From: a virus
Length of the DNA stretch: 41,425 bases
Strand: one strand, 5' to 3'
Virus record (IMG/VR): IMGVR_UViG_3300036851_000391
Coordinates: 1-41,425 of that record
The notes under the pieces were generated by a model, which was not told the DNA's origin, searched no databases, and saw only the letters and a list, made by a program, of their open reading frames with translations. Shown piece after piece: positions 28,046-33,809 of this stretch. The translations under genes and the position numbers were made by a program. How positions within the stretch are numbered: the stretch's first letter is position 1; every line of letters starts with the position of its first letter.

Positions 28046-28174
28046 TCAGAACGAGCCCCTCAGCCGCGCCCACACATCCCGCACCATAAGCGCCGGGATC
28101 ACGATCGCGCAGAACAGGCTCCCGGCCCGGACTTCTCGCCCTCGCGAGCCGTTCGATAGACCGTCGTTTCCCAA
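28046..28174 (-). CDS. Possible small membrane peptide overlapping the next gene
   Basis: A frame from TTG 28174 to TGA 28048-28046 encodes LGNDGLSNGSRGREVRAGSL followed by a hydrophobic FCAIVIPALMV segment and a basic end (42 residues). It overlaps the C-terminus of the gene at 28099 in another frame. Composition is protein-like, but the TTG start and lack of a clear ribosome site keep this tentative. Confidence 0.3.
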   Translation of the reverse strand: MGNDGLSNGSRGREVRAGSLFCAIVIPALMVRDVWARLRGSF

Positions 28175-28332
28175 TGACGCATGCCGATGACGTAGTGCAT
28201 GGGCTCAATCGCCAGCGCCATCTCGTCGCGGTCGTCCTGCTGCGGAACGTTCGTTCCGTGCACAGTCGAGCCGACCATGGCACGCAGGATCACCATTGTG
28301 CCCTTAGGCAAATTCGTTGTTGGATCGATCAT
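28099..28332 (-). CDS. Hypothetical protein, third gene of the Ro operon
   Basis: 77 residues from ATG 28332, ATGA-coupled to the helix-turn-helix gene. It contains MIDPTTNLPKGTMVILRAMV, acidic DDRDEMALAIEPMH and YVIGMRHWETTVYRTA. The end is Ser/Gly-rich where another frame overlaps. No family recognised. Confidence 0.5.
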   Translation of the reverse strand: MIDPTTNLPKGTMVILRAMVGSTVHGTNVPQQDDRDEMALAIEPMHYVIGMRHWETTVYRTAREGEKSGPGACSARS

Positions 28333-28526
28333 GGTCCGCGCCTCGCCTTGACCTTCATCTGAAATAGCTCCCACAACTGGGGACGCATCTTCGCCGTCCC
28401 CAGTTCCCAGTCCTGCCATGTGCGGTACGCGACTCCGATCAATTCGCCGGCTTCTTTTCGGGAAAGCCCAGCCGAGAGACGTTTCCGTTTGATCTCGGCC
28501 GGGGTTGGATTACCCGATGAAGGCAT
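28329..28526 (-). CDS. XRE-type helix-turn-helix regulator behind the Ro gene
   Basis: 65 residues from ATG 28526 (73 if the ATG at 28550 is used, which has AGGG upstream). RKRLSAGLSRKEAGELIGVAYRTWQDWELG is a typical Cro/XRE helix-turn-helix. It overlaps the end of the Ro gene and lies in the same transcript. It could autoregulate the operon through the palindrome in its promoter (30559-30577); this is a hypothesis from co-location. Confidence 0.65.
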   Translation of the reverse strand: MPSSGNPTPAEIKRKRLSAGLSRKEAGELIGVAYRTWQDWELGTAKMRPQLWELFQMKVKARRGP

Positions 28527-30153
28527 TGATGGCTTGCGGGAGCGACGCATCCATCCCTACGAAATTCATGCAACCCGCATCCTTCGGGTCGACCACACTT
28601 GACTCCGTCGCCGTGAAGGCGATGAACCCCAGCTTTAGCGGCCCGATCTCGCGCCGGTACGCCTGCAGCTCTGCTGCAGCATGCGTCGGCCCGGCCCACG
28701 TTTCGTTGTCCGTGTAGACAAGCACAGCGTCAGCCTGGACCTTATTCGCGCGCGCCCAGCGAATGGGGAGCGCGCAATCAGTCCCGCCGAAGTTCATACC
28801 ACGCGTCTTCGCGAGTACGTCATTCAGCGAGTCACGCTTCGTGATGCCAAGGTCGCGGAAGTCCGTCGCGAACCCGAAGGCCCAATACTGCGGCTCGGTT
28901 CGTACCGTGATGAGCGCCATCGCCGCAGCAGCCTCCGCCACGGTGATCGGCGACTCGTTCACGGTCATTCCCATGCTGCCCGAGACATCGATGCCGAGGA
29001 TGAAACGCTTGCCAGTCGGTGCCACGTTATGGAACGACAGATCGAACGCGTAGTCCAGCGCACCTGTTACCTGCGGAACCACCGTCCACGAACCAGATCC
29101 ACGGAAGCCTGATCCCTTCGCGTACGTGCGCGAGGCAAGCAGGACATGCCACGGATGCACGCGCGCCTTACGGATTGCTTCACCATCGGCCAGCTTCTCC
29201 TGCACGAACTTCGCCGCCTGAGAGAACGGCGTTAGCAAGCTACACTTCGACAGATTGCCGAGGTTACGGATCAGCGCCGTGTAGCCGAGGGACGGCAGGA
29301 GCGCTTCCCACACTTCCGCGCTCGACAACAGTTCGGTCGGCACGAACTCACGTTGCAGGCGAGTCTCCGCGATGATCTTCGCCGCCGTCTTTGGGTCCTT
29401 CTCATCACGCACGCGCAACCAGCCGTCCACGAACGGTGCCAGCGTGCGTACACCCTCCCATCCCGTGGCCACCGTCTGGCGTTCGGTCAGTGCCTTGCGC
29501 GCCTTCTGAGCGCGACGTTCCGCGCCGACTTCTGGCTCGCAGATCGCATCAAAGACCCGCTTGGTTGCGGCGTCCTGCGTGACAGGGTGCGTCAGGCGCA
29601 GCACGTCCCGATGGGAAACACCGTTGCGCTGCTGATACTTGATCGCCTGAAACGCGATGTCCTGCGCCGGACGGTCCATGTACCACTTCGAAATCGCCGT
29701 ACGGATACCACGGCCCCAGCCTCCGCCAAGTGCCTGCCGGTACTCCACGAAGGTGAAGAGGTGCGTGCCGATGCGGCACACAGCCGGCAGAGCCGCGAAA
29801 GCCGATTTGCGGGTCGCCTGATCGCCACGCACGGAGGCAAGTGCAAGCGCGAAGATGGCCGGTTCATTCTTCGGCGCCAGTCCCTTGTCGGAAATTTCAG
29901 CCGTCTCGCGCACGACTCGAGCGCCGTCCTGCTTGATGCAGTTCAGCACGACGTCAGCGTTTTCAATCGTGAGTTTCTTTTCGCTCGCGTAGTAGGTGCC
30001 GCCCTGGCTCCCGAGAATCAGGAAGCGCCGCAGACGAGACCAGTCGTCGAGTTCGAACACATAGCCGCCAGCCGCGTTCTGGATCATCGGTTGACCCGGC
30101 AACGGCTGCGACTGGGGAGTCTGGAGGGGAGAGAAGTGCTTCGCGTAGGTCAT
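28510..30153 (-). CDS. rsr: Ro60/Rsr-type RNA-binding protein (TROVE plus von Willebrand A domain)
   Basis: 547 residues with a perfect AAGGAGGT ribosome site. The N-terminal TROVE region (about 10-370) shows the Ro hallmarks: GGYVFELDDWSRLRRFLILG, GGTYYASEKKLTIENADVV, GIRTAISKWYMDRP and a HEAT-like helical ring. The C-terminal von Willebrand A domain has a complete MIDAS: DVSGS (Asp389, Ser391, Ser393), Thr458 in GGTD and Asp482 in YTDNE. Ro proteins form a ring that holds misfolded RNA ends and bind Y RNAs outside the ring; in bacteria they tether PNPase or assist RNA maturation. Length matches bacterial Rsr (about 530). It is the first protein gene after four Y-like RNAs, within one presumed transcript. 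No rtcA or rtcB is present. Confidence 0.95.
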   Translation of the reverse strand: MTYAKHFSPLQTPQSQPLPGQPMIQNAAGGYVFELDDWSRLRRFLILGSQGGTYYASEKKLTIENADVVLNCIKQDGARVVRETAEISDKGLAPKNEPAIFALALASVRGDQATRKSAFAALPAVCRIGTHLFTFVEYRQALGGGWGRGIRTAISKWYMDRPAQDIAFQAIKYQQRNGVSHRDVLRLTHPVTQDAATKRVFDAICEPEVGAERRAQKARKALTERQTVATGWEGVRTLAPFVDGWLRVRDEKDPKTAAKIIAETRLQREFVPTELLSSAEVWEALLPSLGYTALIRNLGNLSKCSLLTPFSQAAKFVQEKLADGEAIRKARVHPWHVLLASRTYAKGSGFRGSGSWTVVPQVTGALDYAFDLSFHNVAPTGKRFILGIDVSGSMGMTVNESPITVAEAAAAMALITVRTEPQYWAFGFATDFRDLGITKRDSLNDVLAKTRGMNFGGTDCALPIRWARANKVQADAVLVYTDNETWAGPTHAAAELQAYRREIGPLKLGFIAFTATESSVVDPKDAGCMNFVGMDASLPQAINAFIG

Positions 30154-30180
30154 AAGGACCTCCTTTGTTAGTGAATCAGA

Positions 30181-30271
30181 TCGGGCGTGGAATTGAAGTC
30201 GGATTAACTCCCTTGCGGGAGTCTTGGAGTCGAACCAAGTTTAACCAGATAACCAACCTCTGCCGGCCCGA
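30181..30271 (-). ncRNA. Y-like RNA 4, with T-arm and GNRA-capped acceptor helix
   Basis: Outer helix TCGGGC (30271-30266) with GCCCGA (30186-30181), internal loop CGGCA, inner helix GAGGTTGG (30260-30253) with CCGACTTC (30202-30195), then TTATC. Inside are a tRNA T-arm, CTTGG-TTCGACT-CCAAG (30239-30223), and directly after it ACTCCC-GCAA-GGGAGT (30222-30207), an acceptor-like stem with a GNRA loop. It lacks a D-arm, so it is a reduced version of RNA 2. It ends about 28 bases before the Ro start codon. Confidence 0.75.
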
Positions 30272-30279
30272 AACTCAAA

Positions 30280-30338
30280 GGGGCGTGGTTGTGAAACAGG
30301 GATGTCGATATGAGTGATAACCCTATCTCTCCGGCCCC
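30280..30338 (-). ncRNA. Y-like RNA 3, minimal form
   Basis: Outer helix GGGGC (30338-30334) with GCCCC (30284-30280), internal loop CGGA on the 5' side and ACAACCAC on the 3' side, inner helix GAGATAGGG (30329-30321) with CCCTGTTTC (30301-30293, two G-T pairs), then a loop starting TTATC. No tRNA-like part. It keeps only the presumed Ro-binding stem, like a stripped Y RNA. Confidence 0.7.
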
Positions 30339-30346
30339 AAAATCAA

Positions 30347-30475
30347 GATGGACGTGGTATGCCAATCGGGGTTTACGCGCTCTAACCAGCTGAGCTACCG
30401 GACCTCACGGCCCGAGGGAGAATCGAACTCCCGACCTCGTCCTCCGAAGGGATAACCGATTAACTCCGGCCCATC
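30347..30475 (-). ncRNA. Y-like RNA 2 with a complete permuted tRNA mimic (YrlA type)
   Basis: Outer helix GATGGGC (30475-30469) with GTCCATC (30353-30347), CGGA loop, inner helix GTTAATCGG (30464-30456) with CCGATTGGC (30369-30361), then TTATC. The inside holds in order: a UUCG-capped arm (30452-30440); a T-arm GGGAG-TTCGATT-CTCCC (30432-30416); an acceptor helix TCGGGCC-GTGA-GGTCCGG (30415-30398) closed by a GNRA loop instead of free ends; TA; and a D-arm GCTC-AGCTGGTTA-GAGC (30395-30379). It is a tRNA cut open at the anticodon arm and closed at the acceptor, as described for bacterial YrlA RNAs. Confidence 0.85.
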
Positions 30476-30482
30476 AATCTGC

Positions 30483-30547
30483 GGCGAACGTGGTGTGCTG
30501 CTTGGGTTATAACATTACAAGTGTTAACCAAACTGCTCCGGCTCGCC
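30483..30547 (-). ncRNA. Y-like RNA 1, at the transcript start
   Basis: Outer helix GGCGAGC (30547-30541) with GTTCGCC (30489-30483), CGGA loop against ACACCAC, inner helix GC-A-GTTTGG with CCAAGC-A-GC (one A-A mismatch), then TTAAC and a small hairpin TAACA-CTTGTAA-TGTTA. The predicted transcription start (about 30550) falls three bases before the outer helix, so the RNA 5' end matches the promoter. Confidence 0.7.
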
Positions 30548-30557
30548 TTTAAATCGA

Positions 30558-30585
30558 AGTATACGGACTCCGTATACGAACGCAA
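30558..30585 (-). promoter_or_regulatory. Promoter of the Y RNA-Ro operon with overlapping palindromic operator
   Basis: On the minus strand TTGCGT (30585-30580) and TATACT (30563-30558) are 16 bases apart. GTATACGGA-C-TCCGTATAC (30559-30577) is a perfect 19-base palindrome covering the spacer and most of the -10. A bound dimer would block RNA polymerase. The regulator is unknown; the XRE protein encoded in the operon is the obvious candidate. The upstream gene ends at 30609, so this promoter makes the operon independent. Confidence 0.7.
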
Positions 30586-30608: not shown

Positions 30609-30818
30609 TTAGTCAGCCACAGCCCCGAAATCCCGGACATCGAGAGGAGCGATTCCTAGCGACTGTGCCTTCTTGAGACCGGCCTCCGTGTAGCGCTCTC
30701 GTCGACCGGGAGGGTATGCATAGCTTGCGATATCCTCCGGCTGTATGCGCTTTTCGGGATCTGATTCCTCAAGATTCATTTCTGCGAACGTGCATGGCCA
30801 GAATGTTTCATTGCTCAT
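30609..30818 (-). CDS. Hypothetical protein, last gene of the leftward early block
   Basis: 69 residues beginning MSNETFWPCTFAEMNLEESD, acidic, with SYAYPPGRRERYTEAGLKKA. ATGA-coupled to the preceding gene. No recognised family. It lies just upstream of the Y RNA promoter. Confidence 0.55.
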   Translation of the reverse strand: MSNETFWPCTFAEMNLEESDPEKRIQPEDIASYAYPPGRRERYTEAGLKKAQSLGIAPLDVRDFGAVAD

Positions 30819-32822: not shown

Positions 32823-33809
32823 TTACTTCATCGCGCCGGCCACGCGTTTCGCTGCCTCGGCCGCATTCGATGGTGCGAGGTGCGCATATCGTAAAACCAT
32901 TGCGTAGCTCTTCCACCCGCCGAGCACCATCAACTCTTGCAGTGTTACGCCGCGCTGGACGGCCCACGAGGCGCCCGTGTGTCTGAGGTCGTGCCAGCGT
33001 AGTCCCTCCAGTCCCGCCGCCTTGGCGGCCTTCCTGAAGGCCTTCGTGTTGAAGTTGTCGATCGGCCGACCGTCCCACTGGAACACGCGCTCGCCTTTGG
33101 GGCTGAGCTTCCGGCAGTCCTTCAGGATGCGGATGGACTTTGGCGTAAGCGGAAAGCTGAATGCCGGCCCGGATTTCATCTGTCCGCGCGGCACCCAAGC
33201 ATGGCGTGCTTTCAGATCCACGCGGTCCCACGTGAGCCCGGACTGCGAGCGCATCCGCAGGAGCGTCAGTACCGCGAATCGTGCGGCGAGCTCCAAGTGT
33301 TTCGGTAGGTGCTTGCACAGCCGCTCGAACTGCGGTGGCATGAGGTATCGGGGCTCGGGCTCTACCTCGCCGTACATCGGTATGTGCGGGACGGATTCCA
33401 GATACCGCCAGCGCTTGCAGGCTCGAAGGACCGCACGCACCGTGCGCATCATCCGGTCCACGGTGGAATGGCTCCAGCCCTCTGTCAGCCCGAGCTTGCG
33501 GAGCTCTTCGAGCGTATCCGGATCGGCGACGGCCGAGACCATCTCCTCGCCGATTTCCGGCTCCAGCCAGTCGAGAAATTCCCGATCCCGCTTGCGCTCG
33601 CGTCGAGAGTCGTTCAGCCATCGCTCGCACGCCTCGCGCCAGGAAATTGCACCACGATCTTCGAGCTGGTCCCGGCGCCAGAGTCGTTCCTCGAGGACGT
33701 GGCCGAACTCTTCGGCTTTTTCGCGGTCCGCTGTGCGCGACGAGCGGCGAGTCTTGCGGCCAATTGCGACCCACCAGAAGGGAGAGCCTTTCCGTCGATA
33801 GAGGCGCAT
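32823..33809 (-). CDS. int: Tyrosine-family phage integrase
   Basis: 328 residues. Catalytic residues: Arg in LTLLRMRSQSGLTW (about 185-187), Lys212 in MKSGPAF, His273-x2-Arg276 in WHDLRHTGASW, Trp299 in LGGWKSY and the nucleophile Tyr308 in MVLRYAHLAP. The N-terminal MRLYRRKGSPFWWVAIGRKT is the arm-binding region and residues 55-145 the SAM-like core-binding domain. It integrates the phage at tRNA-Val through attP at 32680-32725, about 100 bases beyond its 3' end. Its 5' 196 bases overlap the excisionase-like gene in another frame. Confidence 0.95.
   Translation of the reverse strand: MRLYRRKGSPFWWVAIGRKTRRSSRTADREKAEEFGHVLEERLWRRDQLEDRGAISWREACERWLNDSRRERKRDREFLDWLEPEIGEEMVSAVADPDTLEELRKLGLTEGWSHSTVDRMMRTVRAVLRACKRWRYLESVPHIPMYGEVEPEPRYLMPPQFERLCKHLPKHLELAARFAVLTLLRMRSQSGLTWDRVDLKARHAWVPRGQMKSGPAFSFPLTPKSIRILKDCRKLSPKGERVFQWDGRPIDNFNTKAFRKAAKAAGLEGLRWHDLRHTGASWAVQRGVTLQELMVLGGWKSYAMVLRYAHLAPSNAAEAAKRVAGAMK

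What the first reader, a model, noticed from the sequence alone, without database searches (positions are those of the whole stretch)
28046..30585. A phage Ro60-Y RNA ribonucleoprotein locus
The sequence shows a full Ro-type gene (TROVE plus MIDAS-complete von Willebrand A domain) directly behind a block of structured RNAs with Y RNA architecture, all on one strand behind one promoter. Known: bacterial Ro (Rsr) binds Y RNAs, can tether PNPase for degradation of structured RNA, and is rare; a few phage Ro genes have been noted. Inference: a temperate phage carries a self-contained Ro-Y particle, possibly to degrade or remodel host RNAs, tRNAs or competing phage RNAs. Location between late genes and the early operon, with its own promoter, suggests expression in the lysogen.
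Basis: partly seen in the sequence, partly recalled or inferred. Interest (0 to 1): 0.95.

Follow-up and report, generated by a model that had tools for sequence, protein, structure and literature searches.

The report
Phage Ro60 gene with Y RNAs
A temperate bacteriophage carries its own copy of the Ro60 RNA-binding protein together with four tandem Y RNAs, one of them a tRNA mimic; this is a clear new example of a gene set already known in bacteria and phages, and what it does for the phage has not been shown.

Summary
The minus strand carries an intact 547-aa Ro protein (TROVE plus Ro60-type vWA with a complete MIDAS). Directly upstream are four tandem Y RNAs (30547-30180) with 5-7 nt spacers, the last ending 26 nt before the ro start. 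All share the bulged lower stem typical of Ro-binding RNAs. One (30475-30347) is a YrlA-type tRNA mimic; another (30272-30180) has only a T-arm. A covariance model from 11 simple Y units, refined on viral loci, finds Y units in 71 of 80 independent bacterial Ro loci and 82 of 94 viral ones, always on the ro strand, with strong covariation. So the RNAs are real, and Y arrays beside ro are the rule in the loci sampled. The reading as a phage Ro-Y RNP locus is supported. Degradation of host RNA, lysogen expression and a single promoter are not shown; the only promoter match is at chance level. Phage Ro proteins and phage Y RNAs are in print, and a Thermus phage Ro60 structure exists, so this is a new member of a known kind. 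Noticed on the way: Y RNAs sit tightly between tRNA genes in many Ro loci, which suggests processing by tRNA enzymes.

The parts
28510..30153 (-). ro gene, 547 aa: TROVE ring plus Ro60-type vWA domain with complete MIDAS (D389, S391, S393, T458, D482)
   Evidence: AlphaFold2 model mean pLDDT 84.5, Foldseek to Rsr 2nvo E=1.7e-34, TMt 0.82
30483..30547 (-). Y RNA a, 65 nt, simple Y stem-loop
   Evidence: CM hit 46.7 bits; fold z=-3.0; one of the training units of R1
30347..30475 (-). Y RNA b, 129 nt, YrlA-type: Y lower stem enclosing T-arm (30416-30432), acceptor-like stem (about 30399-30416) and D-arm (30379-30396)
   Evidence: CM R2 43.8 bits, in no training set and missed by R1; Rfam RF02553 37.9 bits, E=9.1e-7, below gathering score 69; T and D arms found by script; fold z=-1.55
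30278..30340 (-). Y RNA c, 63 nt, simple Y stem-loop
   Evidence: CM hit 45.0 bits; fold z=-1.94; one of the training units of R1
30180..30272 (-). Y RNA d, 93 nt: Y lower stem enclosing a T-arm (30223-30239) and a second hairpin (30207-30222), no D-arm; ends 26 nt before the ro start
   Evidence: CM hits 33.5 (R1) and 38.4 bits (R2); fold z=-2.35; same T-arm-only layout in L002:2717-2811
30159..30164 (-). Shine-Dalgarno AGGAGG of ro, between Y RNA d and the start codon
   Evidence: sequence read directly
30559..30577 (-). 19-bp perfect palindrome GTATACGGA-N-TCCGTATAC just upstream of the Y array: operator-like, function unknown
   Evidence: only copy in the window, 0 expected by chance
28329..28526 (-). 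65-aa helix-turn-helix protein whose start overlaps the end of ro; a recognisable homologue follows ro in L002 only
   Evidence: Pfam HTH_31 E=4.6e-4, below cut-off; phmmer over 177 Ro loci finds only the window and L002

Best explanation
The locus makes a phage-encoded Ro-Y ribonucleoprotein. Shown by sequence: a complete Ro ring protein with the residues of the family, and four Y RNAs with the conserved bulged lower stem. Inferred: the four Y RNAs and ro are transcribed together (spacers of 5-7 nt leave no room for separate promoters or terminators, and the last Y RNA ends 26 nt before the ro start) and are cut apart afterwards. Each Y RNA binds the Ro ring by its lower stem, while its upper part differs: tRNA mimic, T-arm alone, or plain loop. 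By analogy with Deinococcus and Salmonella, the upper part of a Y RNA tethers the host exoribonuclease PNPase and gates the ring, turning it towards structured or damaged RNA. For the phage, the likeliest use is handling damaged or misfolded RNA, including tRNAs cut during infection or stress.
For: Ro identity by sequence, profile and fold. Residues K172, R176 and H189 lie where Xenopus Ro has K170, R174 and H187 (alignment, positions counted by hand; that these contact Y RNA is recalled); K172 and R176 are invariant and H189 nearly so in both family alignments. A review passage gives a seven-base-pair helix as the Ro60 site (PMC4726728, passages), as modelled here. Covariation on the 11 hand-picked simple units: 14 of 16 pairs change on both sides, score 0.573 against 0.265 in shuffles; the upper helix, not used in picking, has 7 of 8 pairs with a change on both sides. 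135 viral and plasmid hits: score 0.861 against 0.278 (alignment fitted to the structure). Bacterial hits: 0.662 against 0.254 and 0.681 against 0.208. Strand: 246 of 246 hits in 97 viral and plasmid sources and 231 of 231 in 80 bacterial loci lie on the ro strand, both strands searched. T-arms occur in 61 of 86 viral and 87 of 130 bacterial units of 95 nt or more, against 5 of 1720 and 2 of 2600 shuffles. RYPER mechanism: PMC8394870 and PMC7790460 (passages).
Against: No RNA or binding data. The functions of Rsr and Y RNAs had been studied in Deinococcus only, as of PMC7790460 (passage), and nothing here tests PNPase binding. Rfam's YrlA gathering score is not reached, though it is not reached either in 20 other Ro loci searched, several of which carry clear Y units. 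Y units b and c fold only moderately better than shuffles (z -1.55 and -1.94). 12 of 94 viral and 9 of 80 bacterial Ro loci show no Y unit by the model, so the pairing is usual, not universal. The window and L002 Ro form an isolated branch on a long stem (0.82 changes per column), so function could have drifted.
Confidence: 0.85

Rival explanations
1. The Ro-Y particle is a counter-defence or tRNA-repair aid: the tRNA-like Y RNA acts as decoy or scaffold against host anticodon nucleases, rather than as a PNPase adaptor.
For: Authors of the Salmonella operon study propose that the YrlA tRNA-like domain may competitively inhibit an anticodon nuclease (PMC7790460 passage). A jumbo-phage review puts phage TROVE proteins with RNA repair (PMC7824862 passage). 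28 of 94 viral Ro loci have genuine tRNA calls in the flanks. A truncated nucleotidyltransferase fragment (PHROG 388, E=6.6e-8) lies just downstream in the window.
Against: No RNA ligase was seen among the window ORFs tested (not every ORF was tested). No PADLOC model matches the Ro protein or four neighbouring ORFs. The window has no genuine tRNA gene.
Confidence: 0.3
2. The array is mainly the 5' leader of ro: Ro binding to the Y stems in its own transcript stabilises it or represses translation, so the RNAs are control elements as much as partners.
For: The last Y RNA ends 26 nt before the ro start in the window, and within 35 nt in 17 of 50 viral loci with an upstream unit (64 of 94 viral loci could be measured).
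Against: Median distance is 41 nt in viral and 64 nt in bacterial loci, and 7 of 64 viral loci have units downstream of ro; separate Y RNAs are reported in the bacteria studied (PMC4726728 passages).
Confidence: 0.2
3. The tRNA-like stretch is an attP site derived from a host tRNA gene rather than a functional RNA.
For: A tyrosine integrase gene lies about 2.3 kb upstream on the same strand, and ARAGORN calls a tRNA-Arg there.
Against: The order T-arm, acceptor-like stem, D-arm inside a Y stem is that of YrlA (Rfam alignment), not of a tRNA 3' end, and recurs in Ro loci at large. A match to a host tRNA was not searched for.
Confidence: 0.04

Closest known systems
Deinococcus radiodurans Rsr with its Y RNA and PNPase (RYPER)
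   Same: Ro ring protein of the same fold (phmmer 1.8e-114, Foldseek TMt 0.82); Y RNA with a lower stem bound by Ro
   Different: Phage-borne; four Y RNAs in one tandem; PNPase tethering not tested
Salmonella rsr-yrlBA-rtcBA RNA repair operon (YrlA tRNA mimic)
   Same: Ro plus a Y RNA with T, acceptor-like and D arms (Rfam YrlA 37.9 bits)
   Different: Y RNAs lie upstream of ro; no rtcA, rtcB or rtcR seen among the ORFs tested; score below Rfam's gathering cut-off
Phage Ro loci, e.g. Mycobacterium phage I3, Microbacterium phage FuzzBuster, Gordonia phage BearBQ
   Same: Ro gene with Y units beside it on the same strand, one with a tRNA-like module
   Different: Best-ranked phage record is 43% identical in Ro; the window has four units, one of them with a T-arm only
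IMG/VR contig 3300045020_000158 (L002)
   Same: 71% identical Ro, downstream HTH gene, Y array upstream with a YrlA-type unit and the same T-arm-only unit next to simple ones
   Different: Array is longer: five units by the model, seven by eye
Thermus phage phiLo Ro60 dimer (PDB 9l5y)
   Same: A phage TROVE protein with a solved structure
   Different: Distant: Foldseek 18-19% identity

Membership tests
Ro60/Rsr protein family | TROVE domain followed by Ro60-type vWA domain | tested here: met
   Pfam PF05731 145 bits and PF25045 164 bits, both over cut-off
Ro60/Rsr protein family | MIDAS motif DxSxS...T...D | tested here: met
   D389, S391, S393, T458, D482 present and invariant
Ro60/Rsr protein family | Ring-shaped fold like Rsr | tested here: met
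   AlphaFold2 model pLDDT 84.5, pTM 0.77; 2nvo E=1.7e-34, TMq 0.75, TMt 0.82; low confidence at 51-58 and 209-230
Ro60/Rsr protein family | Binds Y RNA | not testable with these tools
   Only the conserved residues K172, R176, H189 support it (their role recalled)
Y RNA (Ro-binding) | Terminal helix of about 7 pairs with a bulged base, then a short helix and an upper stem | tested here: met
   All four units match model R2; 16 pairs with covariation
YrlA-type Y RNA | T-arm, acceptor-like stem and D-arm inside the Y stem | tested here: met
   Unit 30347-30475 has T and D arms by script and in the Rfam alignment
YrlA-type Y RNA | Rfam RF02553 gathering score 69 | tested here: not met
   37.9 bits; none of 20 other Ro loci searched reaches it either, so the cut-off does not cover this diversity
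RYPER (Ro-Y-PNPase) | Y RNA tethers PNPase to Ro | not testable with these tools
   needs biochemistry
rsr-yrl-rtc RNA repair operon | rtcB/rtcA next to rsr and Y RNAs | tested here: inconclusive
   none among the ORFs scanned; not every ORF was scanned

The most novel reading that the evidence does not exclude
Phage Ro loci are multi-adaptor particles: one Ro ring with a set of interchangeable Y RNAs (four here; five by model and seven by eye in L002) that carry different upper modules, including a T-arm-only form. They are made as one long transcript with ro, often threaded between tRNA and tmRNA genes, and are cut out by tRNA-processing enzymes. The set lets the phage point host exonucleases at different RNAs, or shield tRNAs, during infection.
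Probability: 0.2. Interest if true: 0.65.

Novelty: new member of a known kind. Interest (0 to 1): 0.38.

Why it matters
Phage Ro proteins are common in annotation, but no feature table that I opened for 13 named phage Ro loci names a Y RNA, and Rfam at its cut-offs found none in the 21 sources searched. A working Y RNA model that finds them beside most Ro genes would let such arrays be annotated and tested. A 41-kb, probably temperate phage with a self-contained Ro and four Y RNAs is a convenient system for asking what Ro particles do for a phage.

Tried and rejected
Rfam at gathering thresholds found nothing in the window and no Y RNA in 20 other Ro loci, so I built models instead. Single-protein scans gave one viral relative and no bacterial one; the alignment query gave 519 and 366 relatives, of which the best 80 each were kept. 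The idea that the HTH gene after ro is a general partner was dropped: only the window and L002 share a recognisable one, although BearBQ has an annotated HTH gene there and two other phages have weak HTH_31 matches. The ARAGORN tRNA-Arg was rejected as a true tRNA. The promoter claim was tested and is at chance level. The fold of the whole leader is only mildly better than shuffles (z -1.71). Rows dropped before counts: 177 loci were reduced to 172 distinct Ro proteins; only 64 of 94 viral and 43 of 80 bacterial loci had the sequence motif needed to place the start. Viral loci include near-identical contigs (L024/L025, L026/L027, L067/L068, L079/L081 and a group around L038), so 82 of 94 overstates independence; model R2 was trained on viral and plasmid hits, so the bacterial 71 of 80 is the independent figure.
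Full report
What is there. The window is a whole IMG/VR virus record of 41,425 bases. On its minus strand lies a 547-aa ORF at 28510-30153 with a TROVE domain and a Ro60-type vWA domain. It aligns along its length with Xenopus Ro60 and in two long stretches with Deinococcus Rsr. The MIDAS residues D389, S391, S393, T458 and D482 are all there and invariant in two family alignments. An AlphaFold2 model (pLDDT 84.5) matches Rsr 2nvo at E=1.7e-34. Between this gene and its 71%-identical relative in L002, differences fall mostly on third codon positions (130, 98, 291) and dN/dS is about 0.17, so the gene is kept by selection.

The RNAs. Upstream of ro, on the same strand, four units follow one another: 30547-30483, 30475-30347, 30340-30278 and 30272-30180, with spacers of 5-7 nt. 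Each begins with a lower stem of up to seven pairs, then a bulged C and a short helix, an upper stem, and the motif GGTTA(T/A)C; each closes with CCACG before the 3' strand of the stem. The second is of YrlA type: the stem encloses a T-arm, an acceptor-like stem and a D-arm. The fourth encloses a T-arm and a plain hairpin but no D-arm, and its counterpart in L002 has the same layout. Rfam gives the second unit 37.9 bits for YrlA, below its cut-off of 69, and weak matches of three units to a nematode RNA family, ceN72-3; nematode stem-bulge RNAs are described as homologous to Y RNAs (PMC4726728, passages).

Are they more than chance? A covariance model from 11 simple Y units (two from the window, nine from five other loci) was built. 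On those 11 units 14 of 16 pairs change on both sides. The lower stem was part of how most units were picked, the upper stem was not, and it too covaries (7 of 8 pairs). Searched over 97 sources the model gave 135 hits, all on the ro strand. A second model from these hits gave 246 of 246 on the ro strand over the same 97 sources, and 231 of 231 over 80 bacterial loci that took no part in its making. At E<=0.05, 82 of 94 viral, 2 of 3 plasmid and 71 of 80 bacterial loci have at least one unit. Covariation in the bacterial hits is far above shuffles and slid controls, with the caution that the alignments are fitted to the structure; one measure, the number of pairs with a change on both sides, was reached by 112 of 500 shuffles. 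In the window the model finds these four units and nothing else.

Array size. Viral loci carry one to seven units and bacterial ones one to nine. Four is thus ordinary. L002 has five by the model; two more can be seen by eye at about 2480-2560 and 2820-2945.

Setting. A tyrosine integrase gene lies at 32823-33809 on the same strand, so the phage is probably temperate. The portal protein is nearest to that of an uncultured Caudoviricetes record, at 40.6% identity; the host is unknown. The gap of about 60 nt between a 69-aa ORF (30609-30818) and the array holds one weak promoter match, at chance level, and a perfect 19-bp palindrome that occurs once in the window. Ro overlaps a 65-aa HTH gene (28329-28526), found again only in L002 among 177 loci. 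Next comes a 77-aa fragment similar to the N-terminal part of phage nucleotidyltransferases (PHROG 388, E=6.6e-8), which seems truncated.

Descent. In a tree of 172 Ro proteins the window and L002 form a pair on a long branch (support 100, stem 0.82); viral and bacterial labels are intermixed, with 25 changes by parsimony and at least 6 forced by well-supported branches, against 57.5 in shuffles. So Ro seems to have moved between phages and bacteria more than once; IMG/VR contigs may include prophage remnants.

How it probably works. Salmonella and Deinococcus work, as summarised in passages of PMC8394870 and PMC7790460, has the basal stem of a Y RNA on the Ro ring and the effector domain on PNPase, giving a particle that degrades structured RNA; YrlA is a substrate of DusA and TruB. 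The window has both halves of such a particle. That the four RNAs arise from one transcript with ro is inferred from spacing. What the particle does for the phage is not known; RNA surveillance and protection of tRNAs are both open.

Compared with what is known. Phage Ro proteins are in 364 of 50,697 phage records. A Listeria phage paper states that Y RNAs have been found by computation in bacteria and mycobacteriophages, citing Chen et al. 2014, and proposes Y RNAs next to a phage Rsr (PMC12282133, passages). A Vibrio phage paper says that several phages are reported to have YrlA (PMC7765460, passages). I could not open Chen et al. 2014; from memory its abstract reports likely Y RNAs near Ro60 in over 250 bacterial and phage species, at least one per species with a tRNA-like domain. 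A phage Ro60 structure is in the PDB (9l5y). Hence: new member of a known kind.

Side observation. Across the Ro loci, 37 pairs of a Y unit and a tRNA or tmRNA gene lie within -3 to 12 nt of each other, out of 317 same-strand tRNA or tmRNA calls in loci with Y units; moving each Y unit at random within 300 nt gives 5.7 on average and 13 at most in 500 runs, and the one opposite-strand call gives none. In Gordonia phage Boopy a tmRNA, a Y unit, tRNA-Arg, a Y unit and tRNA-Gln follow each other with 2-6 nt between them. This points to release of Y RNAs by tRNA-processing cuts. Searches in the held library listed no paper whose title or abstract start describes this, but those searches were not aimed at it.

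Noticed in passing
L010:4420-5172, L012:126-656, L013:944-1246, L065:2662-2895 and bacterial loci such as L156, L168: Y units are threaded between tRNA and tmRNA genes with 0-12 nt spacers: 37 pairs against 5.7 expected. Suggests tRNA-punctuation processing of Y RNAs.
   Followed up: partly
window:30407-30481 (-); L008:1684-1762; L010:4971-5038; L012:1366-1438: tRNA calls or annotations that overlap tRNA-like Y units (11 such ARAGORN calls in all; annotated cases), so some phage tRNA annotations are probably Y RNAs.
   Followed up: partly
window:28099-28332 (-): 77-aa fragment similar to the N-terminal part of phage nucleotidyltransferases (PHROG 388), apparently truncated, just downstream of ro and the HTH gene.
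   Followed up: partly
window:30559-30577: Perfect 19-bp palindrome between the promoter-like site and the Y array, single copy in the window, operator-like.
   Followed up: partly
L105, L106, L110, L111, L143 (Chloroflexota genome contigs): Very long bacterial Y arrays, up to about nine units, on the ro strand, mostly downstream of ro.
   Followed up: no
L018 (Picosynechococcus plasmid pAQ7): A divergent Ro with no Y unit by the model, but tRNA-like stretches upstream of ro at 2118-2372 that Rfam calls tRNA over 100 nt long, with Y-like motifs at 2026 and 2290: perhaps a variant Y RNA.
   Followed up: no
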